Part shown: positions 2,302 through 52,125 of the stretch, piece by piece
How the letters are laid out: each line of letters starts with the position of its first letter
Position numbering within the stretch: position 1 is the stretch's first letter
Source of the DNA: Rhodocyclaceae bacterium
Lineage (GTDB): Bacteria > Pseudomonadota > Gammaproteobacteria > Burkholderiales > Rhodocyclaceae
Assembly (NCBI GenBank): GCA_019455325.1
Contig: JACFMQ010000010.1
Span: forward strand, 62,001-126,000
DNA length: 64,000 bases
Reading direction: 5' to 3'
Translations under genes and position numbers: made by a program
Notes under the pieces: model-generated
Told to the model about the DNA's origin: nothing
What the model saw: only the letters and a program-made list of their open reading frames with translations
Databases searched by the model: none

Positions 2302-4370
2302 GCCCGATCTCGCGCCTGGTCGGGGTGTTCGCCGCCTCGGTCCGCGCCAAGCTGCTCTTCCTCGTGCTGGCGCCGCTGCTGATCGGCTGCCCGCTGATCA
2401 TGGCGCTCGTCTGGTACTGGAGCAACACCGGCTACCACCAGTTGCTCACCTACAAGGTCGGCAGCGATCTGGTGATCGCGCACGAATACTTCGACCGCGT
2501 CGTCCGCGGCGTCGGCGCCAGCGTCGAGGCGCTTGCCGAGGAGCGCCGCCTGCACCGGGCGCTGGCCGACGGCGACGGCGCGCGCGTCGCCGAGGAGATC
2601 GGCCGCGCGCGGCAGCGGCACGGCCTTGACTTCATGTACGTGCTCGACGCCGAGGGGCGCGTGCGCCACGCCAGCGCCGCCGCCGCGCGGACGGCGCGGC
2701 ACGACGGCTGGCCGGTCGTCGCCGGCGCGCTCGCCGGCCGCGCCGGCAGCGTCATCGACGTCTACGACGCGGCGGCGCTGGCGGCGATCGACCCCTCGCT
2801 CGCCGACCGCGCGGCGATCAACATCGTGTCGACGCCGCGCGCGGCGCCGGACGCGCGGACCAGCGAAGGGCGCGGCATGGTCATCCACGCCGCGGCGCCG
2901 ATCGTCGACGACGCCGGCCGCGTCGTCGGCGCGCTCGAAGGCGGCATGCTGCTCAACGGCAACCTCGGCTTCGTCGACACGATCAACGCCATCGTCTACC
3001 GCGAGGGCTCGCTGCCGCTCGGCAGCAAGGGCACGGCCACGCTCTTTCTCGGCGACACGCGCATCGCCACCAACGTCCGCCTGTTCGGCGACGAGCGCGC
3101 GCTCGGCACGCGCGTCTCGAAACAGGTGCGCGAGCACGTGCTGGACGAGGGCAAGGTCTGGCTGGACACCGCCTTCGTCGTGAACGACTTCTACGTGTCC
3201 GGCTACGAGCCGGTGGTGGACAGCTTCGGCGAGCGCGTCGGCATGCTCTACGTCGGCTTCCTCGAAGCGCCGTTCCGCGTTGCCAAGGAGAACGCGCTGG
3301 CGCTGATCTTCGCCGTCTTCGCGGTGATCAGCCTGGCCGGCTGCGCCTGGTCGCTGAAATGGGCGGGCGACATCATGACGCCGATCGCGGCGATGAACCG
3401 GACCATCGGCCGCATCGAGGGCGGCGAGACCGGCGCCCGCGTCGGCGACACCGGCAGCCGCGACGAGCTGGGGCGGCTGGCCGCCGAGTTCGACCGCCTG
3501 CTCGGCGTGCTCGACGACAAGCGCCGCGAGCTGCAGCGCTGGGCGGACGCGCTCGACGCCAAGGTGATCGAGCGCACGCGCGAGCTGAAGGCGACCAACG
3601 AGGAGCTGCGGCGGACGCAGCGCCAGCTCGTGACCAGCGAGAAGCTCGCCGCCATCGGCGAGCTGACCGCCGGCGTCGCGCACGAGATCAACAACCCGGT
3701 GGCCGTCATCCAGGGCAATCTCGACGTGCTGCGCGAGGTGCTCGGCGAGCGCGCCGAGCCGGTGCGCGAGGAGATCCGCCTGATCGACGAGCAGGTGCAC
3801 CGCATCCGGGTGATCGTCACCAAGCTCCTGCAGTTCGCGCGGCCGGGCGAGTTCGCCGGCTACGTCGAGGCGGTGGACGCGAACGCGGCGCTCGCCGACT
3901 GCCTGGTGCTGGCGCAGCACCACCTCGGCAAGCGCAGCATCGAGGTGGTGCGCGCGCTGAACGCCACGCAGTGGGTGCAGATCAACCGCCAGGAGCTGCA
4001 GCAGGTGCTGATCAACCTGATCGTGAACGCGGTGCAGGCCATGCCCGCGGGCGGCACGCTGACGCTGGCCAGCGAGGACTGGCACGAGGACGGCGCCTGC
4101 CGCGGCGTGCGCCTCTCCGTGCGCGACACCGGCGCCGGCATCCGGGCGGAAGACCTGGCGCGCGTCTTCGATCCCTTCTTCACGACGAAGAAGAACCAGG
4201 GCACCGGCCTCGGCCTGTCGATCAGCCACTCGCTGATCAAGCGCTATGGCGGCGGCATCGCCGTGGACAGCGCGCCCGGCGAGGGCGCGACCTTCACCGT
4301 GAGCCTGCTGGCCGAGCCGGAATACGAGCTCGACGCGGGCGCGCCGTCGCCGGCGGATTCGGGCGGCTGA
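2298..4370 (+). CDS. Membrane sensor histidine kinase with periplasmic Cache domain
   Basis: 690 residues. Transmembrane helix 1 lies at about 19-42, followed by a long periplasmic Cache-type sensor (about 45-330), helix 2 at about 334-358, HAMP, a coiled coil, and a kinase core with phospho-acceptor His near 462 (VAHEINNP), N-box (NLIVNAVQAMP, about 575), G1 (DTGAGI) and G2 (GTGLGLS). It should autophosphorylate and pass phosphate to the regulator encoded just upstream, whose stop codon overlaps this start. The architecture is DctB/NtrY-like: a small-molecule sensing kinase paired with a sigma54 activator. The ligand, possibly a carboxylate as for many Cache domains, is inference. Confidence 0.88.
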
Positions 4371-4375
4371 CGGCG

Positions 4376-5188
4376 ATGCAGGTCCTGTGCCGCTTCCCGG
4401 CGCCGCCGCTGCGCCCTTTCGTCGACCGCTTCTGGGGCTGGCGGAGCGCGCCGGGCGAGCGCGTCGCACTGCCGCGGGTGCTGCCCGGTACCGGGGCCGA
4501 GGTGTTCTTCCACGACGCAGCGCCGTTTCGCGCCGCCGACCGCGACGGCGCGCTACCCCTGCCGCAGGCTCACCTGCTGTGCCTGCGCAGTCGGTCGCTG
4601 CCGCTGCTGCCGCAGGATGTGCCCGGCTTCGTCGCCGTGCGCCTGCGCGCCGGCCGCTTCGGCCGGCTGTCGGCGACGCCGCTCGCCGAGTGCGTCGATG
4701 AGCCGCTGCCGGTCGAGGCGCTGTGGGGCGCCGCCGGCCGGGCGCTGGCGGCGCAGGTCGCCGAGGCCGCGGGCTTCGACGCACGGGTCGATCTGATCGA
4801 AGCCTTTCTACTGCGCCGGCTCGGGTGCGGCGTGCCGGACCGGCTCGTCGAGGCCGCCGTCGACCGCCTCTACGGCGACCCCGCCGGCACCACGGTGGCG
4901 CGGCTGGCCGACGCGCTGGCCGTCGGCTGTCGCCAGCTCGAACGGCGCTTTCTCGCCGCCGAAGGGATCGCGCCAGCGGCGTTCCGGCGCCGCGTACGCT
5001 TCCAGAAGACGGTGCGCCGCCTGCTCCTCGATCCGGGCCGCCCGCTGCTCGACGCCGCGCTCGAACAGGGCTTCCACGACCAGCCGCATTTCTGCCGGGA
5101 CTGCCGGGACCTCGCCGGCCGGCCGCCGGGCGCGCTGCTCGCCGAGATCCGCGGCGCGACGCATTTCTACAATACTTCGCGCCGCTGA
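4376..5188 (+). CDS. AraC-family transcriptional regulator
   Basis: 270 residues starting MQVLCRFPAPPLRPFVDRFWGW, the pattern seen in the N-terminal DUF6597 domain of AraC regulators. The C-terminal third holds two helix-turn-helix units (about 165-260: TTVARLADALAVGCRQLERRF and the FHDQPHFCRDCRDLAGRPPG unit, matching the usual G(F)xDQ(S/P)HFxRxF pattern). It starts 5 bp after the kinase stop, so it is probably in the same transcript. The target genes are unknown; the adjacent SRPBCC gene is a candidate. Confidence 0.8.
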   Translation: MQVLCRFPAPPLRPFVDRFWGWRSAPGERVALPRVLPGTGAEVFFHDAAPFRAADRDGALPLPQAHLLCLRSRSLPLLPQDVPGFVAVRLRAGRFGRLSATPLAECVDEPLPVEALWGAAGRALAAQVAEAAGFDARVDLIEAFLLRRLGCGVPDRLVEAAVDRLYGDPAGTTVARLADALAVGCRQLERRFLAAEGIAPAAFRRRVRFQKTVRRLLLDPGRPLLDAALEQGFHDQPHFCRDCRDLAGRPPGALLAEIRGATHFYNTSRR

Positions 5189-5231
5189 CGCGCGACCATC
5201 GGCCTTCCACGAATCGCCGAGAGGAAATCCG

Positions 5232-5699
5232 ATGCCGCCGACAGCCCCATCCCTTGCCCCACGCCGCGCCGACGCGCCGCTGCGCGTATCGCGCGCGATC
5301 GACATCGCCGCCTCGCCCGAGCGGGTCTGGGCGCTCGTCGGCGACTTCGGCGAGCTTGGCTACCTGGGCGCGCTGGTGGCGGGGAGCGAGATCATCCGCG
5401 GCCGCAACAACCGGGTCGGCGCACAGCGCCTGATCGTGCTCGGCGACGGCGGGCGCATCCGCGAGACGCTGACGGCGCGCCGGCCGCAGCGGCGCTTTCT
5501 TGCCTACCGGATGGACGACGGTCCGCTGCCGGTCATCGGCTATCGCGCGACGATCCGCGTCGCGCCGATCGCCGGCGGCAGCCGCGTGGCGTGGTCGGGC
5601 CGCTTCCGCGGCGCGGGCGACGACGCATTTGCCGCCGGGCTGGTCGGCGGCATCTACGAAGCCGGGCTGGCGGCGCTGAAGGCGGCCGCCGAACGCTAG
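5232..5699 (+). CDS. SRPBCC (START-like) family protein
   Basis: 155 residues. After a short Pro/Ala-rich leader comes the typical opening of polyketide-cyclase/START-like folds (VSRAIDIAASPERVWALVGDFGELGYL), then alternating beta strands and a C-terminal helix (GLVGGIYEAGLAALKAAAER). The fold binds a hydrophobic ligand; no catalytic residue can be assigned, so the function is unknown. A GAGAGGAAA ribosome site precedes the ATG. Its stop codon overlaps the stop of the convergent mobA gene inside the hexamer GCTAGC. Confidence 0.75.
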   Translation: MPPTAPSLAPRRADAPLRVSRAIDIAASPERVWALVGDFGELGYLGALVAGSEIIRGRNNRVGAQRLIVLGDGGRIRETLTARRPQRRFLAYRMDDGPLPVIGYRATIRVAPIAGGSRVAWSGRFRGAGDDAFAAGLVGGIYEAGLAALKAAAER

Positions 5700-6280
5700 C
5701 CGAGCGCGTCGAGCTCGTCGACGGTGTTGATGTTGACGAAGGCTTCGGCCTCGTCGTCGAAGTCCACCTCGACCGCCCGCTGCGCGCGGAACCAGGTCTC
5801 GAAGCGCCGCTCGCCGCGCGCGAGGTAGTCGGCAAGGCCGGGCAGCAGCTCGCGCCGGCACAGGCAGAAGACCGGGTGCAGCCGGCCGCCGGTGCGGGCG
5901 ACGGCGATCGTTGCGCCGGCCGCGTCCAGCCCGGCGGCGAGGCGGGCGACGAGGTCGGCCGGCAGGAAGGGCGAGTCGCACGGCACCGTCGCCAGCAGCG
6001 GCCGGGCGGCGTGCGTCAGCGCCGCGTGCAGGCCGGCGAGCGGGCCGGCGTAGCCGGCGACGACGTCGCCGATCACCGGATGGCCGAAGCCGGCATAGAC
6101 CTCGACGTTGCGGTTGGCGCTGACGAACAGCTCATCCACCTGCGGCGCCAACCGTTCGATCGCCCAGGCCGCCAGCGGCCGGCCGCGAAATTCGCGCAGG
6201 CCCTTGTCCACGCTGCCCATGCGGCGCCCCTGGCCGCCGGCGAGGACGACGCCGGCGATTCCCTTCTCGCTCCGTTCCAT
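5696..6280 (-). CDS. mobA: Molybdenum cofactor guanylyltransferase MobA
   Basis: 194 residues. The nucleotidyltransferase signature VVLAGGQGRRMGSVDKGL follows directly on the N-terminus, then GPLAGLHAAL and VPCDSPFLP (Mg/GTP site), the usual MobA motifs. It attaches GMP to molybdopterin to give the bis-MGD cofactor of nitrate reductases and DMSO-reductase-family enzymes. The ATG at 6280 (MERSEKG) is preferred to the ATG at 6319 because it places the motif at the usual distance from the N-terminus. It stands alone, without other molybdenum genes nearby. Confidence 0.9.
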   Translation of the reverse strand: MERSEKGIAGVVLAGGQGRRMGSVDKGLREFRGRPLAAWAIERLAPQVDELFVSANRNVEVYAGFGHPVIGDVVAGYAGPLAGLHAALTHAARPLLATVPCDSPFLPADLVARLAAGLDAAGATIAVARTGGRLHPVFCLCRRELLPGLADYLARGERRFETWFRAQRAVEVDFDDEAEAFVNINTVDELDALG

Positions 6281-6350
6281 GCTTCGCGCGCTCCGCGCCA
6301 GTGTGACTGGAGCCGGCATTGTACGCGCCGGCGCCGGCTACAATGTCGCC

Positions 6351-6968
6351 ATGGTTCCCGACTACTGGCAGAAGGCGTCGCGCGCGCTGGCGCGCGAGGA
6401 CAGGACGATGGCGGCGCTGGTGCGGCGCTATCGCGGCATGTCGCTGGTCTCGCGCGGCGACGCCTTCGGCACGCTGGCGCGCTCGATCGTCGGCCAGCAG
6501 ATTTCCGTGAAGGCGGCGGACGCGGTCTGGGCGCGCTTCGCCGCCGCCGTCGGCGCGGTGTCGCCGGCCGCGGTGCACGCCGCCGGCGCCGGCGGGCTGG
6601 CCGGCTGCGGCCTCTCCGCGCGCAAGACCGAGTATCTCGTCGACCTCGCCGCGCACTTCGTCGAGGGGCGCGTCGATCCGGCGCGCTGGTCGGCGATGGA
6701 CGACGAGGCGGTGATCGTCGAGCTGTGCGACGTGCGCGGCATCGGCCGGTGGACCGCGGAGATGTTCCTGATCTTCAGCCTGCTGCGCCCGGACGTTTTT
6801 CCGCTCGACGACATCGGCCTGCAGAAGGCGGTGTCGCTGCACTACTGCGCCGGCGAGCGGCCGTCGAAGAAGGCGCTGGCCGAGTTCGGCGAACGCTGGC
6901 GGCCGTGGCGCTCGGTGGCGACCTGGTATCTGTGGCGCAGCCTCGATCCGCTGCCGGTCGAATATTGA
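6351..6968 (+). CDS. DNA-3-methyladenine glycosylase (AlkA-like, HhH-GPD)
   Basis: 205 residues of the HhH-GPD superfamily: GTLARSIVGQQISVKAADAV is the conserved first-helix region, and VRGIGRWTAEMFLIF is the helix-hairpin-helix followed by the catalytic-Asp region FPLDDIGLQKA. It should remove alkylated purines from DNA by base excision. The start MVPDYWQKASRALA matches betaproteobacterial relatives. It lies head-to-head with mobA across 70 bp and precedes a second glycosylase gene, forming a small base-excision repair cluster. Confidence 0.88.
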   Translation: MVPDYWQKASRALAREDRTMAALVRRYRGMSLVSRGDAFGTLARSIVGQQISVKAADAVWARFAAAVGAVSPAAVHAAGAGGLAGCGLSARKTEYLVDLAAHFVEGRVDPARWSAMDDEAVIVELCDVRGIGRWTAEMFLIFSLLRPDVFPLDDIGLQKAVSLHYCAGERPSKKALAEFGERWRPWRSVATWYLWRSLDPLPVEY

Positions 6969-7010
6969 ATCAAAGGATGTAAACGCAACCCATGAAAGGA
7001 AGAACTCCCC

Positions 7011-7802
7011 ATGCCTGAAGGCCCGGAAATCCGCCGGGCGGCCGATGCCCTGAATCAGGCCGTCGCCGGTCGCCCGTTGACCGAAGTGTGGTTTGCCTTT
7101 CCCCACCTGCAAGCCTTCCGGCCCCGCCTGCTGGGGGCCGAGGTGATGCGCATCGAGCCGCGCGGCAAGGCGCTGCTCACCCATTTTTCGAGCGGGCTGA
7201 CGCTCTACAGCCACAACCAGTTGTACGGCCGCTGGCGGATCGCCCGGCCGGGCGAGAACCCGTTGCCGAGCCGGACGCCGAGAGTCCGCCTGGAAACCGC
7301 CGACACGGCGGCGGTGCTCTACAGTGCCTCGGACATCGACCTCCGGCCGAGCGCCGAAATCGAATCGCACCCCTTCCTGCAACGCATCGGCCCCGACGTG
7401 CTCGACGCGCGGCTCGACGCCGAAACCATCGTCGCGCGTCTGCGGGAAAAGCGTTTCGCCCGCCGCCGGCTGGGCGCGCTGCTGCTCGATCAGGCTTTCC
7501 TCGCCGGGCTGGGCAACTACCTGCGCGCGGAAATTCTCTGGCAGGCGCGCCTGAATCCCGAATTGCGGCCGGTCGACCTTTCGCCCGAGGCGCTGGCCGC
7601 GCTCGTACAGGCCCTGCTCGACGTGCCGCTGCGCTCGTACACCACGCGCGAAGCGGCCGGCAGCGGGGCGTACCACGAGGCGGTGTTCCGCTTCCACGTC
7701 TTCAAGCAGGACGGCCAGCCCTGCTCGCGCTGCGGCACGCCGGTGGCGAAGATCGCCCATTCGTCGCGGCCGCTGTACCTCTGCACCGCCTGCCAGGCAT
7801 AG
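7011..7802 (+). CDS. nei: Endonuclease VIII-type DNA glycosylase/AP lyase
   Basis: 263 residues, close to the Nei length. The N-terminus [12 protein letters not shown] contains the catalytic Pro2 and Glu3 of the Fpg/Nei family (exposed after Met removal), and the C-terminus carries a four-cysteine zinc finger (CSRCGTP...LYLCTACQA). [10 protein letters not shown] together with [10 protein letters not shown] is more Nei-like than MutM-like. It excises oxidised pyrimidines and nicks the abasic site. A GAAAGGAAG ribosome site precedes the ATG, 42 bp after the AlkA-like gene. Confidence 0.9.
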
Positions 7803-7890: not shown

Positions 7891-8859
<969 letters not shown>

Positions 8860-10148
8860 TCTGCCGGAACGCGTCGCGGCCTTCTTCGCGCCGCGGCTGC
8901 CGCGGGGGCGGCACGTCTGCGTTGGCCTTTCCGGCGGGCGCGATTCGGTCGCCCTGCTGCAGGCGCTGGCGGAAGCCGGCGCCGCGCTGCCGCTGCAGCT
9001 CTCCGCGCTGCACGTCCACCACGGCCTGTCGGCGAACGCCGACGCCTGGGCCGATTTCTGCGCCGACCTGTGCCGTTCCCTCGGCGTGCCGCTGCGAATC
9101 GTGCGCGTGCGCGTCGACGACGCATGCGGCGAGGGGCTGGAGGCCGCCGCCCGGCGCGCACGCTATGCCGCCTTCGCCGAGGTCGAGGCCGACTGGCTGG
9201 CGCTCGCGCACCACCGCGACGACCAGGCGGAGACGCTGCTGCTCAACCTGCTGCGCGGTGCCGGTGCGCACGGCCTGGCGGCGATGCCGGCGGAGCGGCC
9301 GCTGACGCCGGGCGCCGCGCTTCGTCTCGTGCGGCCGCTGCTCGCCGCGTCCCGCCGCGAGATCGAGGACTGGCTGACGTCGCGCGGCGCCGCCTGGATC
9401 GACGACGAAAGCAACGCCGATGAGCGGCTGCGCCGCAATTTCCTGAGAAACGAAATCCTGCCCCGGCTCGCCGGCGTCTTTCCGGAGCCGTCGGCGGCGC
9501 TGGCGCGCGCCGCCGCCCGGCTGGCCGAGAGCGCGGCGCTGGCCGATGCGGTGGCAAGGGCCGACGCCGCCGGCGTCGTCGACGGCGAGACGCTGCTGCT
9601 GCCGGCCTTCAACGCGCTGCCGGCGGCGCGGCGCGCCAACCTGCTGCGCCGCGAGCTGCATTGCCGCGGTCGGCGCATGCCGGACGCGCGCCACCTGGCG
9701 GAAATCCTGCGGCAACTGGCGTCGGCCGCCGCCGATGCGGCGCCGCGCTTCGCCGTCGACGGCGGCGAGCTGCGCGTCGAGCGCGGCCGCCTTCATTTCG
9801 GCGCCGCTCCGGCAGCGGCGCCGGCATCGCTGCCCTGGCGCGGCGAGGTCAGCCTGCCGTGGGCCGGCGGCGTGCTGCGCTTCGTTGAGGGCGTCGGCGT
9901 CGGCCTGTCGCGCGCGCGGCTGGCCGACGCCGAGGTGTGCGTCCGCGGCCGTATCGGCGGCGAGCGCCTGCAGCCGCATCCGCGGCGGCCGCGGCGGCCG
10001 CTGAAGAAACTGCTGCAGGAGGGCGGCGTGCCGGCGTCGGCGCGGCAGGCGCTGCCGCTGCTCTACTGCGGCGACGAGCTGGTCTGGGTCGCCGGCGTCG
10101 GCGTCGATGTCCGCTTCGCGGCGGCGCCGGGCGAGGCCGGCGTGCTGC

Positions 10149-36080: not shown

Positions 36081-36157
36081 TGGCGCGCCCGGCAGGATTC
36101 GAACCCACGACCCCCTGGTTCGTAGCCAGGTACTCTATCCAACTGAGCTACGGGCGC
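36081..36157 (-). tRNA. tRNA-Arg(ACG)
   Basis: 77 nt including encoded CCA. Acceptor GCGCCCG/CGGGCGC, D-arm GCTCAGTTGGATAGAGT, anticodon stem CCTGG/CCAGG around CTACGAA (anticodon ACG) and T-arm GTGGGTTCGAATCCTGC. ACG is read as ICG and decodes CGU/CGC/CGA. Confidence 0.97.
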
Positions 36158-36218
36158 GTAAAGAAGCGGAATTATATGGACCGCTCCGGATTTTGCCAAG
36201 TCTTTCTTGCGAAAATCT

Positions 36219-36246
36219 TGGCGGAGACGGAGGGATTCGAACCCTC
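36219..36246 (-). other. 3' fragment of a tRNA-Ser gene: prophage attachment site (att core)
   Basis: On the minus strand this reads GAGGGTTCGAATCCCTC (T-arm), CGTCTCC (acceptor 3' half), G and CCA. No matching 5' half (GGAGACG) or anticodon arm follows upstream, so the tRNA is split. The T-arm and acceptor match serine tRNAs of betaproteobacteria. The integrase gene begins to its right, so this is the host-side att junction. Repeats of CGGGGA at 36261-36288 may be integrase arm sites. Confidence 0.75.
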
Positions 36247-36310
36247 TCAAGCCGTTTCACCGGGGAATTCCGGGGAACGGCGGGGATTGTAATCAAGAGC
36301 TTGCCCACAA

Positions 36311-37558
36311 TCAATCCCCTACCACCCCCCTCTTTTCCCATAATTCCGCAGTAGATTCCGCAGTAGACGTGGAAATATTTTTTTCTGCGATGCTCGAATT
36401 GACCGCCTTGAGGTTCGCCCCGCGGTCCGCGTGCGGAATCCACCGGGCGTAGTCCCGCATCATCACCTGGACGCTGTGGCCGTGTTGCGCCGCGACCCAC
36501 ACCGGGTTCGCGCCGGCCATCAGTGCCAGCGTCACGCTGGTGTCCCGGCATTCCTTCGGCGGCCGGTAGCGCACGCCGGCGGTGCGCAGCACGCTGGTCC
36601 ATACCTTGCGCTGCTCCTGCTCGTCGTTCCACGGCCGGCCGGTGGCTGGATTGCGGAAGACGTGATCGCCGGCGAGCTGTGTCCGTGCACGCTGGCGCTC
36701 GATCACCGCCGCGGCGCGGGTGTTGAGTTCGACGTCGCGCTCTCTGGCCGTCTTCGTTCGTTCCTTGTCCTTGGCGAGCACGCGCGATCGTCGGATCTTG
36801 ATCGTGCCGGCCCGCAGGTCGACGTCCTGCCAGAGCAGAGCGATCTGCTCGCTCGGCCGCAGCCCGGAGAAGAATGCGAACTCGAAGTAGTCGCCGTAGT
36901 CGTCGCCGAATCGCTTGCGCATGGCGGCCAGGACAATCTCGACCTCGGCCGGCGCAAACGGGTCCGGGGGCGCCTTTTGCACCTTCAGGTTGTCGATGCC
37001 ATCGGTCGGGTCGCGTTGCAGCGGGTCTGCCTTGCAGATCAGCGCGAAGACGCCGCGCAACGGAATCAGGATGTTGTTCTGCGTCTTCCTGGACAGCGGC
37101 TTGATGATCTTGCCGGTCTGCTCGTCGAGTCGCTCGCTGGCCAGCCGGGCCAGGTGCTTGAGGATGCGCTCATGCGTGATTGCCGGCGGCATGTCGTCGC
37201 CGAATGCGGATGTCCAGTAGGCGGCCAGGTGCCGCTTGTAGATGCGCAGCGTCGAATCCTCGAGGTCGCGCACGGAAAGTTCGCCCCACAGCTCGGCCCA
37301 TTGCCGGAACGTACGGCCGCCTGCGTCGGCGGCGTGCTTCTCGGCGAATTTATAGCCGGGGAAGTAGGCGGCCAGGTTGAACGTGCCGGCCTTGATTTCG
37401 ATGAGGATGGCGTCGCGGATACGGCGCGCGTGCTTGAGGTTCGCTGCCGTCGGCCGCATGTCGAGCGTCGGCCGAAGCTCCTTGCCGCGCCACGAAAACC
37501 GGACCTGGATGCGATCGCCGAGCGGCGTTACGCCGCCTGTTTCTGACCTTCGACCCAT
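36311..37558 (-). CDS. int: Tyrosine-type site-specific integrase
   Basis: 415 residues. N-terminal DUF3596/arm-binding part (MGRRSETGGVTPLGDRIQVRFSWRGKE is split into a beta region), SAM-like core-binding domain (about 85-190), and catalytic domain (about 205-385) with Arg in FFSGLRPSEQ, Arg in CRDTSVTLAL (instead of the usual HxxR), His in QHGHSV and Tyr in MMRDYARW. The C-terminal tail contains a tandem 12-bp repeat (36343-36366) encoding STAESTAE. It lies next to the att site and overlaps xis. Confidence 0.93.
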   Translation of the reverse strand: MGRRSETGGVTPLGDRIQVRFSWRGKELRPTLDMRPTAANLKHARRIRDAILIEIKAGTFNLAAYFPGYKFAEKHAADAGGRTFRQWAELWGELSVRDLEDSTLRIYKRHLAAYWTSAFGDDMPPAITHERILKHLARLASERLDEQTGKIIKPLSRKTQNNILIPLRGVFALICKADPLQRDPTDGIDNLKVQKAPPDPFAPAEVEIVLAAMRKRFGDDYGDYFEFAFFSGLRPSEQIALLWQDVDLRAGTIKIRRSRVLAKDKERTKTARERDVELNTRAAAVIERQRARTQLAGDHVFRNPATGRPWNDEQEQRKVWTSVLRTAGVRYRPPKECRDTSVTLALMAGANPVWVAAQHGHSVQVMMRDYARWIPHADRGANLKAVNSSIAEKNISTSTAESTAELWEKRGVVGD

Positions 37559-37932: not shown

Positions 37933-38124
37933 TCATGGTTGCGCCTCGTCGCCGACCGGCGATTCGCCAATAAGCATTTGCAGCCGTTGGATGGCAGCAT
38001 CCGGGTCGCCGTCTTCGATTTCCATGATCGCGTTGCGAATCTGCGTGGCCATGATGCTCCGATAGCGCATCTCTTCCTGCGCCTGCTGCCGCCTGAATGC
38101 TTCGCTAAATACGCTCGTCATCAT
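37933..38124 (-). CDS. Small phage protein, unknown
   Basis: 63 residues (MMTSVFSEAFRRQQAQEEM...IQRLQMLIGES), helical and charged. AAGGAGG precedes the ATG at good spacing, and the start overlaps the methyltransferase stop by 4 bp, so it is part of the operon. Function unknown. Confidence 0.6.
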   Translation of the reverse strand: MMTSVFSEAFRRQQAQEEMRYRSIMATQIRNAIMEIEDGDPDAAIQRLQMLIGESPVGDEAQP

Positions 38125-39821
38125 GCCGTTCCTCCTTGCGCCACCGACAGCGCCACCGCCACCGGCCGCACCCAGATCGGCGTGGACGACAGCAGGAACG
38201 TCTCGCCGGACCAGGCCAACAGCAGGGTCTGGTACATGGTCGAGGCGATGGCCTCGGCGGCGGCAGGGGGGACGGCGTTGCCGATGCGTTCGCGCCAGGC
38301 ACTGTCGTTGAGGCCGTCCAGTTCGAGGTATTCCTCCGGTTCGATGATCGACTGCAGGACGGCCAGTTCCAGCGTCGTGAAGGGCCGGTGCCAGGTGCCG
38401 TCCATGGCGCGGATGACGGCGACCAGCTTGTCGGTGGCGGCCGGCATGCGGTGGTCGGCGACGGACCAGAAACCGTTGTCGTGGCAGGCGGCCGACGAGA
38501 CGGCGCCGCTGGTGTCGGTCATGCGCCGGACACCGTAATGGCCGCCGGTCAGGTAGTGGTCGCCTTTCTGCGGGATGCCACTCGGGCGCGGATCGGCCAC
38601 GCATTGACCGCTGCCGTGGGCGCCGGTGACAGCCATGGCGGCGCCATCGAAGGGCACGATGCGGAATTCGTTGCTGTGTTTCTCCGGCCCCTGGTGGCGC
38701 GGGTCCGCCACGCTGAACGTGCCTTGCCCAGGCGATTTCACGTTGATCACCGCGCCGGCCGTGTCTTCCATGCGCATCACGCCGTACTGCGAGTATTCCA
38801 GCGTGCCGGCCGGCGGGCGCGGATCGGCGATCGAGAAGGCGCCGTTGCTCGGCCCGGAGCGGCCGGCCACGGTGCCCATCGAGGCGTCAAAGCGATTCAC
38901 GCCGAGGAAGCCGGCGCGGTACTCCGGCACGATCAGGAAATCCTGCAAGTAGCCGTCCTCGACGTTCAGCCGGTTCAGGCTGCGCCAGTCGCTCCCGGCC
39001 TCGACGAAGGCGAGCCGCACCCACGTCTTCCACTGCAACTGCGGAATGCGGTGCATCGGGCCGCCGGCCGGATCGCCCGGCAGCGGCATCCGGTCCAGGA
39101 CCGTGCCGACCGCCTGCAGCCGATGCTGTGGCGGTTCGTACAGGAAGGGCGGCACCTTCTCCATGTGCCGGGCGACGCCCAGGAAACGCTTGCGGCTCTG
39201 TGCCAGCCGGCCCAGCTTGCCGCAGTCGTGCGTCGTCTCCGCCCAGGCATAGCCATAGGCCCGGAACAGCTTGGCGATCCGATCCAGCAGATGCCGGCCC
39301 CGGGTGGCGATGCGCGGCACGTTCTCGAACACGATCAGTTCCGGCAGGCAATCCTTGAAGGCTTCCAGCATCAGGAACACGCCGCGTTCGGTCAGGCCGT
39401 TGAGCGCAACGTACTTGTCCGTCTTGCTCCGCGTCTCGTTCAACAGTCCGGAAAAACCCTTGCACGGGGCGGACAGGAAAACGATGTGCGGGAACTCGTA
39501 GCCGGCGGCGCGAAGGATGTCCTCCGGCGTGGCTTCCTTCCAGCCGGCCGGCGGCATGCGGCCGTGGAAGGCGATGTACTGTTCGAGCGAGAACATGTCC
39601 AGCGTCGTCGCCTCGACGCCGACCAGCCGCCTGAAATCTCGGTTGGCGGCGGGGTCGACGTCGACCGAACCGATGCAGCGCGGCCGAGCGACCATGTTGC
39701 CGACCCGGGCGCTGCCGCGCATGAAGCCGCTGGCGCCGGCGCCTATGGCGCCGAAGAGATGGAAGTGGCGGATCTCGCGGACGTCGACGGGGGCGGCGGT
39801 GAAGCGATCGCGGGCGGTCAT
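38121..39821 (-). CDS. Phage DNA (cytosine-5-)-methyltransferase
   Basis: 566 residues. C5-MTase motifs: AdoMet motif I HLFGAIGAGASGF (about 21-33), catalytic Cys120 in APCKGFSG (motif IV with Lys in place of the common Gln), ENV at 166-168 (motif VI), QSRKRFLGVA (motif VIII, about 208) and RIGNAVPP near 512 (motif X). Residues 315-465, where a target-recognition domain is expected, hold four modules with the hallmark (S/C)(I/V)ADxR (at about 331, 371, 408, 454). It probably protects phage DNA from restriction. The start overlaps the upstream stop by 4 bp. Confidence 0.88.
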   Translation of the reverse strand: MTARDRFTAAPVDVREIRHFHLFGAIGAGASGFMRGSARVGNMVARPRCIGSVDVDPAANRDFRRLVGVEATTLDMFSLEQYIAFHGRMPPAGWKEATPEDILRAAGYEFPHIVFLSAPCKGFSGLLNETRSKTDKYVALNGLTERGVFLMLEAFKDCLPELIVFENVPRIATRGRHLLDRIAKLFRAYGYAWAETTHDCGKLGRLAQSRKRFLGVARHMEKVPPFLYEPPQHRLQAVGTVLDRMPLPGDPAGGPMHRIPQLQWKTWVRLAFVEAGSDWRSLNRLNVEDGYLQDFLIVPEYRAGFLGVNRFDASMGTVAGRSGPSNGAFSIADPRPPAGTLEYSQYGVMRMEDTAGAVINVKSPGQGTFSVADPRHQGPEKHSNEFRIVPFDGAAMAVTGAHGSGQCVADPRPSGIPQKGDHYLTGGHYGVRRMTDTSGAVSSAACHDNGFWSVADHRMPAATDKLVAVIRAMDGTWHRPFTTLELAVLQSIIEPEEYLELDGLNDSAWRERIGNAVPPAAAEAIASTMYQTLLLAWSGETFLLSSTPIWVRPVAVALSVAQGGTA

Positions 39822-40237: not shown

Positions 40238-40437
40238 GCTTCGCTCCCTTGGAAAGTCGAAACCGGCGCCGCCGGCAAGAACTGATCGCACGCGCTCGCG
40301 CCCGCCTCGCGGCGCATGTCCATCGCCGCCCATGGCGCCGTCGCGCCGGCGGTGTCGCGGCGGGTGTAGCGCAGGCACCGGCTGCGGCTCGGGCAGTTGC
40401 CGCCCGGGCAACGTGCGAAATCGTGTGGCAGGTCCAT
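40234..40437 (-). CDS. Small Cys-containing phage protein
   Basis: 67 residues starting MDLPHDFARCPGGNCPSRSR; C-P-G..C-P....C resembles a short conserved phage protein with a metal-binding knuckle. ATG 40437 has AGGAGA upstream, while the ATG at 40458 has none. Function unknown. Confidence 0.55.
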   Translation of the reverse strand: MDLPHDFARCPGGNCPSRSRCLRYTRRDTAGATAPWAAMDMRREAGASACDQFLPAAPVSTFQGSEA

Positions 40438-40454
40438 TTCCTGGAATCTCCTGG

Positions 40455-40577
40455 TCATCGGGTGGGGCCGGTGTGGGCCAGCGCCGCGCGGTAGGAGTGC
40501 AGCGCCTCGGTTCGATCGCGGCCGTCGGCGCGGCGGACGTGGAATTTCTCGATGAGGCCCTGTTCTCGCATGTTCAT
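40455..40577 (-). CDS. Very small phage protein
   Basis: 40 residues, MNMREQGLIEKFHVRRADGR... The KFHVRRADGRD stretch resembles the N-terminus of a longer phage protein family, so this may be a truncated relative. AGGAGCG precedes the ATG. Confidence 0.45.
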   Translation of the reverse strand: MNMREQGLIEKFHVRRADGRDRTEALHSYRAALAHTGPTR

Positions 40578-40596
40578 GGTTTCGCTCCTGTGGCGG

Positions 40597-41388
40597 TCAC
40601 GGCTGCGCCGCGACCAGGGACCGGGGATCAGAGACCCCGATGGGTTGGGTGCAGCGGACGGCGACGAGGTCGTAGCGGAGGTCGGGCCAGCCGCCGACGA
40701 GGTAGAACGCGCCGGCACACCGCCCCGAGAGCCAGCAGCCGCCCCGGAAGAGCGCATAGCCGGACCAGTCACACCGCTCCTCCGGCCGCCAGCCCATCCC
40801 CTTCTTCATGCTCGGGTAGGGGGTCGCGGTCAGGCTCGGCGAATCGGCCTCGATGATGGTCGTCAGGCCGTTCTCGTCGCCCTGCAGGTCGTCGAAGACC
40901 CACTGCCAGACGTTGCCGTTGAGGTCGCAGATGCGCTCGCCGTTCGAGAGCGTCAGCCAGCGGCGTTCTTTCTCGTCCGCGGGGGTGTAGTCGCCCGGCT
41001 GCGGGCCGCTCACGCTGCCCTTGCGCAGGCCGCGGAACAGCTTGCCGGCGCCGACCCGGCCGCCCGTCCAGTTGCAGTCCTGCCGCGCGGCGTCGATGGC
41101 GACGGCCAGCCACTGGCGCTCAGTGACCTGCGCATAGCCGGCCGCCGCGCAGGCGGCGCGCGCCTCGTGGTAGTTGATGTTGACCCACGGCACGCCGGTG
41201 GCGGTCACGGCCAGGCGGCCGTCATCCCCCTTGCTGCAGGCGAACTGCCCGACGCGGAAGCTCGGCACGACGATGCCGCCGGGCAGGGTGACGTCGGGAA
41301 CGGTAATGAAGCAGTCGGTCGCGGCCGCCGTGGCGGCGGCGCCGCTGGCCGCCGGCTGGCCGGCGACAGGGTTCAGGGCTTGGTCCAT
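40597..41388 (-). CDS. FGE-sulfatase/C-type-lectin-fold protein, putative DGR target (VP1)
   Basis: 263 residues related to the formylglycine-generating-enzyme (SUMF1) fold: WVNINYHEARAACAAAGYAQ, ERQWLAVAIDA, ICDLNGNVWQWVFDD and the C-terminal FRGGCWLSGRCAGAFYLVGG...AVRC. No catalytic Cys pair of true FGE is evident. The last part matches VP2 (42914-43627) base for base except at clustered non-synonymous sites. This is how diversity-generating-retroelement targets look, so the protein probably displays a variable ligand-binding surface. AGGAG precedes the ATG at 41388, which lies 16 bp inside the preceding gene. Confidence 0.8.
   Translation of the reverse strand: MDQALNPVAGQPAASGAAATAAATDCFITVPDVTLPGGIVVPSFRVGQFACSKGDDGRLAVTATGVPWVNINYHEARAACAAAGYAQVTERQWLAVAIDAARQDCNWTGGRVGAGKLFRGLRKGSVSGPQPGDYTPADEKERRWLTLSNGERICDLNGNVWQWVFDDLQGDENGLTTIIEADSPSLTATPYPSMKKGMGWRPEERCDWSGYALFRGGCWLSGRCAGAFYLVGGWPDLRYDLVAVRCTQPIGVSDPRSLVAAQP
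40648..40767 (-). repeat. Variable repeat 1 (VR1) of a putative diversity-generating retroelement
   Basis: 40 codons from Trp to Thr of VP1, aligned with 42929-43048. Nine codons differ (Tyr/Leu, Phe/Val, Cys/Phe, Leu/His, Cys/His, Tyr/Gly, Val/Asp, Leu/Ser, Leu/His). All 13 changed bases are at positions 1 or 2 and the third base is the same pyrimidine in each; 31 codons are identical. A template with AAY at these nine codons would explain both copies by adenine mutagenesis. Confidence 0.75.
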
Positions 41389-41648
41389 GAGGACTCCTTT
41401 GCGCGAGTGAAAAAGCGCCGATGGAAGGCCATCGACGAGACGATTCCGAAGGGGCCGCCGAGCAGGAAGGCGGCGATGTCGATGCCGCCGGCGTCCGGCG
41501 CGAGCTTGAAGAGCACGAGGTTGCTGCCGCCGATGGCGAAGCTGGTGACGAAGGCGGCGCGGTAGTGGCCACCGTTGACGTTCAGCGACTGCAGGCCGAG
41601 GAAGAAGACCAGGGCGAAGGTGCTGACGAAGAGGGCGAGGGCGGTCAT
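41373..41648 (-). CDS. Small phage membrane protein
   Basis: 91 residues with three hydrophobic segments (MTALALFVSTFALVFFLGLQ; AAFVTSFAIGGSNLVLFKL; IAAFLLGGPFGIVSSMAF). Similar short membrane proteins occur in phages of Burkholderiales and relatives; the role is unknown. Overlaps neighbours at both ends. Confidence 0.7.
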   Translation of the reverse strand: MTALALFVSTFALVFFLGLQSLNVNGGHYRAAFVTSFAIGGSNLVLFKLAPDAGGIDIAAFLLGGPFGIVSSMAFHRRFFTRAKESSWTKP

Positions 41649-41848
41649 TCGGCCGATCTCCTCAAATCCTCGGCGCGCGCGTTGTTCGCCGCGTCGATCA
41701 CACCGGCCATGCCGGTGATCAGCAGCATCTCCAGCAGCGTCGCGTCGTCGGCGAGCGGGTGGCGTTCGCGCAGGAGTTCGACGGCACGGTTGAGCACGGC
41801 CGAAAAACGCCCCGGCAGGCTGATGCCGATGAGGATCGGTTCGTTCAT
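41645..41848 (-). CDS. Small phage protein, unknown
   Basis: 67 residues, MNEPILIGISLPGRFSAVLN..., helical; 4-bp overlap with the membrane-protein gene. No family recognised. Confidence 0.55.
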   Translation of the reverse strand: MNEPILIGISLPGRFSAVLNRAVELLRERHPLADDATLLEMLLITGMAGVIDAANNARAEDLRRSAE

Positions 41849-41973
41849 CGCGCGGCCTTTGCCCAAGCGAGCCGGGGCGAGTAGTTGAGCCGGCGCATGT
41901 AGCGCCAAGCGATCAGGCAGCGCATGACGAACCGCGCGGCGCGGGTGGCGATGGTGAGTCGGCGCGCAGTCAT
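41845..41973 (-). CDS. Short basic phage protein
   Basis: 42 residues, MTARRLTIATRAARFVMRCL..., strongly basic and aromatic. GGAGG precedes the ATG and both ends overlap neighbours by 4 bp, as in a tight phage operon. Function unknown. Confidence 0.5.
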   Translation of the reverse strand: MTARRLTIATRAARFVMRCLIAWRYMRRLNYSPRLAWAKAAR

Positions 41974-42179
41974 GCGGCCTCCGGCGGTTGCGGTTCGTCG
42001 GCGGCGCGCGGCCGGGCGGCGACCAGCGCCCATCCCTTGCACGGGCGCGGCAGCAGCGCCACCTGGCGGCCGTTGGTGTAGAGCCTCTGGCCGGCCCCGC
42101 GCGCGGCGAGCGCCGCCTCGATGAGGTCAAAGGCGGCGGCGTCCGGGTGTGCCGGGAAGATGACGGCGGCGGGGATCAT
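41970..42179 (-). CDS. Small phage protein, unknown
   Basis: 69 residues, MIPAAVIFPAHPDAAAFDLI...NGRQVALLPRPCKGW. Conserved-looking operon member; 4-bp overlaps on both sides. Confidence 0.55.
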   Translation of the reverse strand: MIPAAVIFPAHPDAAAFDLIEAALAARGAGQRLYTNGRQVALLPRPCKGWALVAARPRAADEPQPPEAA

Positions 42180-42466
42180 TCCCTCCACCCCCCATCCCTC
42201 GGCAGGACGCGTTCGCGCGGCAGGAACTTGATTACGTGCGCGAAGTGGTCTTCGGTGCGCTGCATTGAGCCGTCCGGAACGATCTCCGGCGCGTCGAGCG
42301 GGCCATCGAACACGCGGATGCCGGGCCGGACGTCGACGCGGAACGAATGCCTCGCCGAGGCTTGGAGCGATCCGTCGTCGTCGCCGAAGTCTGGCCAGCG
42401 CTCGTAGTTGAGCTCCGCCTGGATCGGGCAGCCCTTGCCGCGATGCATGGCGATCAGGTGAGGCAT
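42176..42466 (-). CDS. Hypothetical phage protein
   Basis: 96 residues, MPHLIAMHRGKGCPIQAELNY... The ATG at 42466 or a GTG at 42472 could start it; GGAGG lies upstream. No family recognised. Confidence 0.55.
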   Translation of the reverse strand: MPHLIAMHRGKGCPIQAELNYERWPDFGDDDGSLQASARHSFRVDVRPGIRVFDGPLDAPEIVPDGSMQRTEDHFAHVIKFLPRERVLPRDGGWRE

Positions 42467-42468
42467 GA

Positions 42469-42858
42469 TCACGCGGCCTCCGCGAGTGGCATGCGCGGCG
42501 TGACGTTCGCCGCGACGCTGATCGGGACGTCGAAGCCTTCGAGGTGGATAAGGGTGTCTTCCCGATTCCACGGCTTTTCGCTCTCACTGGCGATGCGCAG
42601 GCCTGCGCCGGTGATGGCGGCGATGATCTCGTGGCGCGATACGTGGCCGGGGCTGAACTGGACCCAGACGGTAATGCCTTGGGGGGCCACGCTGGCCACC
42701 GGGCAGCCAGTGCAGCATTCCTCCGGCAGGTGCGCGCGGAGTTTCTCGGAGAGGACTTCGGCCTCGGCGAGCAGCCCGGCGTTGGCACGCACGATCTCGA
42801 CCATCTGCGCAGCTTCGCGCTCGATCCGATCGATGACTTTCTGTTTGAGTTTCATCAT
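42469..42858 (-). CDS. Hypothetical phage protein with coiled-coil N-terminus
   Basis: 129 residues. A helical N-terminus (KQKVIDRIEREAAQMVEIVR...) with two adjacent cysteines (EECCTGC) precedes an alpha/beta part. Excellent GGAGG site before ATG ATG. It lies directly downstream of VP2. It does not show the four-helix pattern of a DGR accessory (Avd) protein clearly enough to be called one. Confidence 0.6.
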   Translation of the reverse strand: MMKLKQKVIDRIEREAAQMVEIVRANAGLLAEAEVLSEKLRAHLPEECCTGCPVASVAPQGITVWVQFSPGHVSRHEIIAAITGAGLRIASESEKPWNREDTLIHLEGFDVPISVAANVTPRMPLAEAA

Positions 42859-42913
42859 GTTCCTCCGTTGTCGCGGGCTAGGTCACCGCTGCGCGGCGAC
42901 CCGAGACCAGGGA

Positions 42914-43627
42914 TCAGAGACCGGGCAGGGTGCAGCGGACGGCGACGTGGTCGTAGCGGGAGTCGGGCCAGCCGCCGTCGAGGCCGAACGCGCCGGCATG
43001 CCGCCCCGAGTGCCAGAAGCCGCCCCGGACGAGCGCAAGGCCGGACCAATCGACGCCGGCCCTCGGCGTCCAGCCCTGGCCCTTCTCTTCGGCCGGGTAG
43101 GGAATGACGATGCTCGGCGAGTCGGCGGCGAAGGGGCGGGCGACCAGACCGTTCTCGTTGCCCTGGATGTCGTCGAAGACCCACGAGAAGGCGTTGCCGG
43201 CGATGTCGTAGATGCGCTGGCCGCCCGGCAGCTCGAACCAGCGGCGCTCGTCCGGGTCCGGCGATTCGTAGGTGGCCGGCTGCGCGCTGCTCATGCGGCC
43301 CTTGCGCAGCCCCTGGTAGAGCTTGCCGGCGCCGACCCGGCCGCCGGTCCAGTTCGCCGGCTGCAGGGCGATCTGGTAGGCGAGCGCGAGGCTCTGGCTG
43401 TCGGCGATCATCGGCGTGCCGGCGGCGGCCGCGACGCGGCGCGCCTCGTGGTAGTCGATGCGTACCCACGGCGCGAGGTCCGCCACGCTGACGGGCAGCC
43501 CGTCGTCGCCGCGGGCGGCGAGGTACTGCCCGGCGCGGAAGCCCGGCACCACGAGCCCGCCCGGCAGCACGGTCTCCGGCACGGTGACGAATTCGCCGCG
43601 GTCTGCGGCCGGCGTTGCTTGGCTCAT
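42914..43627 (-). CDS. FGE-sulfatase/C-type-lectin-fold protein, putative DGR target (VP2)
   Basis: 237 residues, paralogue of VP1. Shared landmarks include VPETVLPGGLVVPGFRAGQY, WVRIDYHEARR, ANWTGGRVGAGKLYQGLRKG, YDIAGNAFSWVFDDIQGNENGL and LALVRGGFWHSGRHAGAFGL...VAVRC. The N-terminal 190 residues differ widely from VP1, whereas the C-terminal 40 codons are nearly identical apart from nine hypervariable positions. GGAGG before the ATG at 43627. A terminator lies 12 bp upstream, so expression probably needs read-through from the early promoter. Confidence 0.8.
   Translation of the reverse strand: MSQATPAADRGEFVTVPETVLPGGLVVPGFRAGQYLAARGDDGLPVSVADLAPWVRIDYHEARRVAAAAGTPMIADSQSLALAYQIALQPANWTGGRVGAGKLYQGLRKGRMSSAQPATYESPDPDERRWFELPGGQRIYDIAGNAFSWVFDDIQGNENGLVARPFAADSPSIVIPYPAEEKGQGWTPRAGVDWSGLALVRGGFWHSGRHAGAFGLDGGWPDSRYDHVAVRCTLPGL
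42929..43048 (-). repeat. Variable repeat 2 (VR2) of a putative diversity-generating retroelement
   Basis: Partner of 40648-40767 (see there for the codon pattern). Downstream of both copies the sequence GTCTCTGATCCC then GGTC and GCGCAGC/GTGACC is conserved, although it is coding in VP1 and past the stop in VP2. That is consistent with a conserved homing (IMH-like) segment. Confidence 0.75.
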
Positions 43628-51147: not shown

Positions 51148-52125
51148 GTGCAGATGATCGTCCTCACCGAAGCGGAACTGGATCTGCTCTCCGGCGAGCC
51201 GGCCGAGGTACTGAAGCTCTACGTCTGCCTGCGGCGGCGAATGGATTTCGCGACGGGCCTCGTCGGCGCGATGACCGGCGTGTCGTGGTGGGCGCTGCGC
51301 GAGGACATGCACGTGAGCGGCGCCCAGGGCCGCGCGCGCGGCGAAAGCGGCACGCCGAGCGAGCGCATGGTCGAGCGGAAGGTGGATCGCCTCGTCGCGC
51401 TCGGCCTCGTCGAGCGCCGGTCGCTCTACCGCAAACTCGTTTTTTTGCTCCCCATGGCCCACCGCGCATCGGCACGTCCAAAAGAAGTGGGGCCGAGTTG
51501 GGGCCGAGAGGCGGGGCCGGAAGTGGGGCCGGAAGTGGGTCCGACCGAATCCCAGACGGCGCAATGGTTTGCGGAAGAAGTGGGGCCGAAAGTGGGGCCG
51601 GAAGTGGGGCCGAGTTGGGGCCGAGAAGTGGGGCCAACATCAGGTATCAGGGTAAACCATCTCTCTAAATCAAAGCCAGCGGCAGCACTACCCGCGGTGG
51701 TAGACGCGCGCGAGGCGCTGTTGCTGGCGCCGCAGCAGATGGCCGAATGGCTGCGAGAGGCCGAGAGGCGCCGGGGCAAGATTCTGCGTGTGGTGCCGAC
51801 CGATCCGCTGCTGAAAACCTGGTCTTCAGAGAGGGTGCAACTCGACGACCTGCGCGCCGCCCATGCCATGGCGGTTGCGGACCGCGATGCGCGCGGCGAG
51901 CCGGCGCCGGTCTCGCCGGGCTTCCTGCGCATCTTCCTCGACCGGCTGCGCAGGCGAAACGGCGGCGTCGAAAACGACGTGCCGTGGTTCCGGTCGGCGG
52001 CGGGCATCGAGGCGCAGGGCGCGGCGCTCGGGGTTTTCAGGCAACCGGGCGAGCGGTTCCCGAGCTTCAGGGCGCGGGTCTATGCCGCGGCCGGAATCAC
52101 CGACGACGTTGCGAGGAGGTTGTAG
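51148..52125 (+). CDS. Replication initiation protein (lambda O-like) with internal repeats
   Basis: 325 residues. The N-terminal part (about 1-105) looks like a winged helix (LLSGEPAEVLKLYVCLRRRM...SERMVERKVDRLVALGLVER). A central Gly/Pro/Val segment (about 113-163) is made of EVGP units encoded by 12-bp DNA repeats. The C-terminal part (AMAVADRDARGEPAPVSPGF...RRNGGVEND) resembles the ends of phage replication proteins. Likely initiates phage replication from repeats within its own gene, as lambda O does. Start GTG 51148 or ATG 51154. Confidence 0.65.
   Translation: MQMIVLTEAELDLLSGEPAEVLKLYVCLRRRMDFATGLVGAMTGVSWWALREDMHVSGAQGRARGESGTPSERMVERKVDRLVALGLVERRSLYRKLVFLLPMAHRASARPKEVGPSWGREAGPEVGPEVGPTESQTAQWFAEEVGPKVGPEVGPSWGREVGPTSGIRVNHLSKSKPAAALPAVVDAREALLLAPQQMAEWLREAERRRGKILRVVPTDPLLKTWSSERVQLDDLRAAHAMAVADRDARGEPAPVSPGFLRIFLDRLRRRNGGVENDVPWFRSAAGIEAQGAALGVFRQPGERFPSFRARVYAAAGITDDVARRL
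51485..51635 (+). repeat. AAGTGGGGCC iteron-like repeats (candidate phage origin)
   Basis: AAGTGGGGCC occurs six times exactly (51485, 51521, 51578, 51590, 51602, 51626) and once as AAGTGGGTCC (51533), mostly at 12-bp steps, with two GTTGGGGCC variants between them. An AT-richer stretch follows (51640-51685). The arrangement matches iterons plus an unwinding region inside a replication gene. Confidence 0.6.

What the first reader, a model, noticed from the sequence alone, without database searches (positions are those of the whole stretch)
40648..43048. Two protein C-termini carry the mutational footprint of a diversity-generating retroelement
The 120-bp segments 40648-40767 and 42929-43048 (minus strand) were aligned by eye. 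Of 40 codons, 31 are identical at all bases. The other 9 differ at 13 bases, all at codon positions 1 and 2, and the third base is always the same pyrimidine in both copies. Ordinary paralogue divergence would add synonymous third-base changes, of which there are none, and would not spare the framework. Adenine-directed mutagenesis of AAY codons in a template repeat predicts exactly this pattern. The host proteins have the FGE/C-type-lectin fold typical of DGR targets, and the segment lies at the C-terminus as expected.
Basis: partly seen in the sequence, partly recalled or inferred. Interest (0 to 1): 0.92.

Follow-up and report, generated by a model that had tools for sequence, protein, structure and literature searches.

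The report
Retroelement targets stranded in a prophage
Two prophage genes carry the signature of a known system that randomises protein tips; this prophage has lost the machinery, but a second prophage in the same genome still has it.

Summary
The DGR reading is supported. A template repeat (TR) and a reverse transcriptase gene lie on another contig of the same genome, C29, in a second prophage with an Avd-like accessory gene and two more targets. Over a fixed 117-bp span, all 14 VR1/VR2 differences fall on TR adenines (P = 2e-12); the window VRs differ from the TR at 18 and 16 of 23 adenines but at only 2 of 94 other bases. So the window holds orphan DGR targets. A 1,000-bp tract identical to C29 lacks 3,762 bp of it (most of a target gene, the accessory gene, TR, a methylase, nearly all of the RT), joined at a 12-bp repeat that leaves a 40-aa fusion scar. 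Of 10 viral contigs with the RT tail motif, 2 also lack the rest of the RT. Whether C29 still diversifies VR1/VR2 in trans is not shown. VR1 equals its C29 copy, and the C29 TR has two non-adenine bases found in none of the four VRs, which argues against recent activity. DGRs, remote targets and degenerate loci are already known.

The parts
40652..40768 (-). Variable repeat VR1 (117-bp span compared with the C29 TR); 5' limit of the repeat not fixed to the base
   Evidence: 18 of 23 TR adenines changed, 2 of 94 other bases
42933..43049 (-). Variable repeat VR2, same span
   Evidence: 16 of 23 TR adenines changed, 2 of 94 other bases; 14 of 14 VR1/VR2 differences on TR adenines
40597..41388 (-). 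VR1 target gene, 263 aa, FGE/C-type-lectin fold, VR at its C-terminus
   Evidence: Translation; PF03781 E 6e-5, 0.1 bit under its cut-off; model pLDDT 90, Foldseek hits 5nyy and 5vf4 TaqVP
42914..43627 (-). VR2 target gene, 237 aa, paralogue of the VR1 protein (57% identity)
   Evidence: Translation, alignment A3, PHROG 9572 sulfatase-modifying factor; no Pfam hit
40652..40665 (-). GC-rich 14 bases (GTCGCCGTCCGCTG) at the VR1 3' end, identical in the TR; IMH-like
   Evidence: that this corresponds to the (GC)14 of IMH is by analogy with Guo 2011 (passages)
42933..42946 (-). Same 14 bases at the VR2 3' end
40595..40615 (-). Inverted repeat GGTCGCGGC-GCA-GCCGTGACC after VR1 (hairpin/cruciform candidate)
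   Evidence: 9-bp stem, 1 mismatch; shuffle p 0.05; motif in 30 of 39 VR flanks, not after the C29 TR
42881..42901 (-). Inverted repeat GGTCGCCGC-GCA-GCGGTGACC after VR2, with a compensatory change relative to VR1
   Evidence: (shuffle p 0.055)
40251..41250 (-). 1,000-bp tract without mismatch to C29 (C29:4778-5504 and 9255-9531), flanks 81-93% identical
40516..40527 (-). Deletion junction: 12-bp repeat CGACGGCCGCGA present at C29:5493-5504 and 9255-9266; 3,762 bp absent here
40455..40577 (-). Scar ORF of 40 aa: start of the C29 VR4 gene fused in frame to the last residues of the RT
36081..37558 (-). Prophage end: tRNA-Arg(acg) 36081-36157 and integrase 36311-37558
38121..39821 (-). C5 cytosine DNA methylase gene beside the VR1 gene; 81-84% DNA identity to C29's copy

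Best explanation
The two C-terminal segments are variable repeats of a diversity-generating retroelement. An RNA copy of a template repeat was reverse transcribed with random bases at adenines and written over the 3' ends of two FGE/lectin-fold genes, 5' of a conserved GC-rich stretch and hairpin. Both window VRs and both C29 VRs were written from one template lineage, the one now in the C29 prophage. The window prophage exchanged DNA with a C29-type cassette (1,000 bp without mismatch) and, by a 3,762-bp deletion between 12-bp repeats, lacks target gene VR4, accessory gene, TR, methylase and nearly all of the RT. VR1 and VR2 are therefore orphan, probably frozen, targets that still have the 3' features of a target. 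Shown: TR, RT gene, adenine-only differences, homologous cassettes, junction and scar. Inferred: past retrohoming as the writing mechanism, order of exchange and deletion, present inactivity.
For: Exact footprint. TR and RT gene on C29. 14 of 14 VR1/VR2, 16 of 16 VR3/VR4 and 16 of 16 VR2/VR4 differences on TR adenines. In 17 related cassettes with a TR (two pairs near-identical), 33 TR-VR pairs: 518 of 899 adenines changed against 30 of 3,048 other bases (the segment finder penalised non-adenine mismatches, so the second figure is biased low; one search is not). RT: PF00078 81.7 bits, over the cut-off; best PDB match 8ub7. Avd-like C-terminal domain in 14 of 14 homologues at E <= 1. VR protein fold matches TaqVP. 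Hairpin motif in 30 of 39 VR flanks, with CGGC/GCCG, CCGC/GCGG and CTGC/GCAG stems. TR-RT spacer with 18 of 36 predicted pairs showing double changes in 15 systems. Deletion junction and scar.
Against: No retrohoming was observed. C29's TR has two non-adenine bases that no VR in the genome has. VR1 and its C29 copy are identical over 201 bp, so neither has been rewritten since the exchange. Pfam/NCBIfam scores for FGE and Avd are below curated cut-offs. The RT tree did not resolve the placement of the Bordetella phage RT, and held no non-DGR outgroup. Shuffle p for the two window hairpins is only 0.05 and 0.055.
Confidence: 0.93

Rival explanations
1. The orphan VRs are still live targets: the C29 retroelement diversifies VR1 and VR2 of the window prophage in trans.
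For: VR2 lies outside the exchanged tract, in a gene of different ancestry, yet agrees with VR1, VR3 and VR4 at all 94 non-adenine positions, while 14 other TRs differ from C29's at 7 to 18 such positions: the same template lineage wrote it. Both window VRs keep the GC stretch and inverted repeat. C29's RT ORF is open with YVDD. Trans diversification of degenerate loci was inferred in Thiohalocapsa (Dore 2024, passages).
Against: VR1 equals VR3; C29's TR has two bases not passed to any VR; VR2 could have been written in cis before the deletion.
Confidence: 0.2
2. The two genes are ordinary paralogues with diversifying selection or gene conversion at a binding surface.
For: They are real paralogues (57% identical), and the C-terminus is a plausible binding surface of the fold.
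Against: Every change sits on an adenine of a separate template copy next to an RT gene; no third-base changes; 33 TR-VR pairs in relatives show the same.
Confidence: 0.02
3. No deletion: the 1,000-bp identity and junction are an assembly artefact of two similar prophages, and the window prophage really has its own cassette.
For: The genome is in 31 contigs; C29 begins inside phage sequence; the two prophages share long similar stretches.
Against: The junction is a 12-bp repeat, short for an assembler to join on, inside one contig; flanks at 81-93% are distinct from C29. A genome-wide search finds one TR-like copy and two RT genes, none on C3. Two viral contigs show comparable RT loss.
Confidence: 0.05

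Closest known systems
Bordetella phage BPP-1 DGR (mtd/avd/TR/brt)
   Same: Order target gene, accessory gene, TR, spacer, RT; adenine-only TR-VR differences; GC-rich 3' stretch and downstream inverted repeat; a Rauchvirus BPP1 relative's RT is 33% identical
   Different: Two targets per cassette in C29; Avd domain fused to a MutS_I-like domain; a D12 methylase gene between spacer and RT in C29; target genes not in the late structural block of the window prophage
Thiohalocapsa PB-PSB1 DGRs (Dore 2024, PMC10907252, passages)
   Same: One complete locus plus degenerate loci lacking RT or TR, whose VRs match a distant TR at non-adenine sites
   Different: There, transposons are held responsible for duplication and field data show diversification; here it is two prophages, a microhomology deletion, and two mismatched non-adenine TR bases
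Gut prophage DGRs with a distal second VR (Nature 2025, PMC12629997, passages)
   Same: VR distal to the RT cassette, near a DNA methyltransferase gene
   Different: There the RT cassette is in the same phage; here it is gone from this prophage
Thermus aquaticus variable protein TaqVP (PDB 5vf4)
   Same: FGE/C-type-lectin fold of a DGR variable protein; Foldseek E 5.6e-7
   Different: 18% sequence identity, TM-score 0.37-0.52

Membership tests
Diversity-generating retroelement (genome level) | TR and VR that differ only at TR adenines | tested here: met
   18 and 16 of 23 adenines, 2 of 94 other bases; the two exceptions are shared by all four VRs
Diversity-generating retroelement (genome level) | Reverse transcriptase of DGR type near the TR | tested here: met
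   C29:8341-9327, RVT_1 81.7 bits, best PDB match 8ub7, IGNQPSQ and YVDD. That 8ub7 is the Bordetella DGR RT and that IGxxxSQ marks DGR RTs is recalled; the tree had no non-DGR outgroup
Diversity-generating retroelement (genome level) | Accessory protein (Avd) | tested here: met
   NCBIfam DivGenRetAVD E 5e-6 and PHROG 'Avd protein of DGR' E 1e-5, the former below its cut-off; bAvd in 14 of 14 homologues at E <= 1, MutS_I in 3 of 14
Diversity-generating retroelement (genome level) | GC-rich stretch and hairpin/cruciform 3' of the VR, not of the TR | tested here: met
   14 identical bases at the end of TR and all four VRs; motif in 30 of 39 VR flanks, absent after C29's TR; single-site shuffle p 0.05 and 0.055 in the window
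Diversity-generating retroelement (genome level) | Structured spacer RNA between TR and RT | tested here: met
   15 systems, 36 predicted pairs, 18 with double changes
Diversity-generating retroelement (genome level) | Target with C-type-lectin/FGE fold | tested here: met
Complete DGR in the window prophage itself | TR and RT in the same element | tested here: not met
   Only an RT tail and the deletion junction remain; genome search places TR-like copy and RT genes on C29 and C31
DGR target diversified in trans | Variation at TR-adenine positions in a population, dependent on a distant RT | not testable with these tools
   No reads, no second isolate; 0 of 6 same-genus genomes sampled have the VR2 protein or close RT

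The most novel reading that the evidence does not exclude
Loss of the retroelement core with retention of its targets is a recurrent state in this phage group: the phage keeps a lucky variant frozen, or becomes a non-autonomous client whose targets are rewritten in trans by a co-resident prophage's DGR. VR2, whose gene is of different ancestry but matches the C29 template lineage at all 94 non-adenine bases, would be a target captured by an incoming cassette.
Probability: 0.25. Interest if true: 0.62.

Novelty: new member of a known kind. Interest (0 to 1): 0.45.

Why it matters
The finding shows that a DGR can be recognised from its targets alone, when TR and RT lie on another contig; the contig-based survey of Roux 2021 states that it would miss such remote targets (passage). 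It also gives a dated-looking loss event (1,000 bp without mismatch, a clean 12-bp junction, a readable scar) in a genome that still holds a complete cassette of the same lineage, so that freezing versus trans diversification can be tested by sequencing two short amplicons.

Tried and rejected
Rejected: ordinary paralogue divergence, by the template copy. The weak genome hits on C7 and C24 have no VR-protein relative at those places. Looking for live variation in near-identical viral contigs led nowhere: L063/L064 (30 mismatches in the longest match), L065/L067 (92) and L074/L078 (38) gave no clear VR-confined change; L064's second VR and L078's VR are cut off by the contig end. L081/L077 and L018/L032 are identical and so uninformative. 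The VR2 protein has no match in the annotated phage collection at E <= 1e-5, the VR1 protein none in the PDB by sequence at E <= 0.1. A PDB profile search with the accessory protein gave only one chance-level hit, E 0.42, and its AlphaFold2 model was poor (pLDDT 68.5), so it was not searched by fold. Whether C3 and C29 are one prophage was considered: each has its own repressor-like gene and integrase(s), so I read them as two, but neither is seen whole. The eight viral records without a full RT in my loci were searched whole: 2 have only an RT tail, 6 none; two of those six are fragments under 10 kb and I count none of the six as loss. The phrase 'recurrent loss' therefore rests on the window, L034 and L073; in L073 only the last 25-27 RT residues remain and the left side of the break is unidentified. 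Literature searches for degenerate or deleted DGRs, MutS-Avd fusions and methylase genes in DGRs were read as listings; passages only were read of PMC8144416, PMC8867640, PMC10907252, PMC6642488, PMC3240598, PMC12875486, PMC12135933 and PMC12629997. I recall, without a call, that Wu and colleagues (2018) listed a MutS-like accessory gene in DGRs.
Full report
OBSERVATION. The two minus-strand segments differ at 13 bases in 9 of 40 codons, only at codon positions 1 and 2, and 31 codons are identical. Both are the C-termini of paralogous genes, 40597-41388 and 42914-43627. Immediately upstream the genes match at 68 of 120 bases, within the repeat at 101 of 114.

TEMPLATE AND ENZYME. A search of the window's own genome (31 contigs) with 201 bp around VR1 gave seven matches: two on C3 (the window), three on contig C29, and two weak ones on C7 and C24. 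On C29 they are a target gene identical to VR1 in this stretch (VR3), a second target (VR4), and a third copy at 7278-7398 with adenines at the variable positions. RVT_1 has two matches in the genome, at C29:8536-9180 and on C31. The C29 order is VR3 gene 4635-5423, VR4 gene 5443-6354, accessory gene 6406-7254, TR 7276-7392, D12-type adenine methylase, RT 8341-9327. The RT is RVT_1 at 81.7 bits, its best PDB relative is 8ub7, and it has IGNQPSQ and YVDD. The accessory protein has an Avd-like C-terminal part; bAvd is found in 14 of 14 homologues and MutS_I in 3 of 14 at E <= 1.

ADENINE RULE. In a fixed 117-bp span VR1 differs from the TR at 18 of 23 adenines and 2 of 94 other bases, VR2 at 16 and 2, VR3 at 18 and 2, VR4 at 15 and 2. 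All 14 VR1/VR2 differences, all 16 VR3/VR4 and all 16 VR2/VR4 differences are on TR adenines. The first two bases of the span may lie outside the true repeat. In 17 related cassettes with a TR (one pair identical and one 97% identical), 33 TR-VR pairs have 518 of 899 adenines and 30 of 3,048 other bases changed. That finder penalised non-adenine mismatches, so its second number is biased low; many of the 30 are the single base just beyond the end of the repeat.

OTHER DGR FEATURES. TR and all four VRs end in the same GC-rich 14 bases. An inverted repeat of the form GGTCnCnGC-loop-GCnGTGACC follows 30 of 39 VRs examined and is not after the C29 TR; stems of three matched kinds occur (CGGC/GCCG 12, CCGC/GCGG 5, CTGC/GCAG 2) plus CTGC/GCGG 6. 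For the two window sites alone the shuffle p is 0.05 and 0.055. Guo 2011 reports that such hairpins are needed for BPP-1 homing (passages). The spacer between TR and RT is conserved in 15 systems with 18 of 36 predicted pairs changed on both sides in at least one. The model of the VR1 protein (39-sequence alignment, pLDDT 90.2) matches formylglycine-generating enzymes (5nyy, E 1.9e-7) and TaqVP (5vf4, E 5.6e-7), at TM 0.42-0.52 by query length for these and similar hits.

THE LOSS. The window lies in a prophage: tRNA-Arg and integrase at 36081-37558, terminase, portal and major head genes from 54211 on. C29 holds phage-like genes with their own repressor-like and integrase genes; by eye its second half looks chromosomal. 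From 40251 to 41250 the window has no mismatch to C29, while beyond it identity falls to 81-93%. Inside this tract the window jumps from C29:5504 to C29:9255 at the 12-bp repeat CGACGGCCGCGA, so 3,762 bp are missing: nearly all of the VR4 gene, the accessory gene, TR, spacer, methylase and RT except its last residues. The result is a 40-aa ORF (40455-40577) that begins as the VR4 gene and ends as the RT.

RELATIVES. In 395 genomes drawn from the family, 5 (G000 included) have an RT at 62% identity or more, and the same 5 have a VR2-like protein at E <= 1e-20; none of the 6 other same-genus genomes listed has either. Of 10 viral contigs with the RT tail motif, 8 have the RT (one cut off by the contig end) and 2 only the tail. 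One of these two, L034, keeps two target genes and joins residue ~69 of the accessory protein to residue ~262 of the RT; the other, L073, keeps one target gene and 25-27 RT residues. Whole-record searches confirm that no other RT is in those two records, which are incomplete.

MECHANISM. Most likely the VRs were written by mutagenic retrohoming from one template lineage. All four VRs agree at all 94 non-adenine positions, while 14 other TRs differ from C29's at 7 to 18 such positions. VR2 lies outside the exchanged tract, so it too was written by this template lineage, either in cis before the deletion or in trans from C29. Against recent activity: VR1 and VR3 are identical, and the C29 TR has two non-adenine bases in none of the four VRs. 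I put 0.2 on live trans diversification.

KNOWN KINDS. This is a DGR with remote, orphaned targets. Dore 2024 describes complete and degenerate DGR loci in one genome with inferred trans action (passages); a 2025 gut-phage study reports distal second VRs near methyltransferase genes (passages). In the searches made (listings and passages) I saw no report of a prophage that lost its DGR core by a short-repeat deletion while another prophage of the genome keeps it; that is a statement about those searches only.

Noticed in passing
L013 (G000:C31:280000-290000), 3151-3257, 3626-3732, 4299-4405, 4325-5578: A second, different DGR in the same genome: TR, two VRs (11 of 27 and 13 of 27 adenines changed, 0 of 80 other bases each) and an RT with IGNLSSQ.
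   Followed up: partly
C29 TR, L010:7276-7392: Two non-adenine bases of the TR (C in CGGGCC, T in TGGTAC) differ from all four VRs of the genome; the second change also occurs in one VR of L071. Unexplained: template drift after the last homing, or transfer of another template.
   Followed up: partly
L010:7553-8348: A D12 adenine methylase gene sits between the TR spacer and the RT in C29; the closest cassette, L087, has a fragment of it there. Its role, if any, is unknown.
   Followed up: partly
L034:7837-8201 and L073:12192-12284: Two viral contigs with target genes and only an RT tail left.
   Followed up: yes
window 51482-51662: Short GC-rich direct repeats around AAGTGGGGCCG in the prophage.
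   Followed up: no
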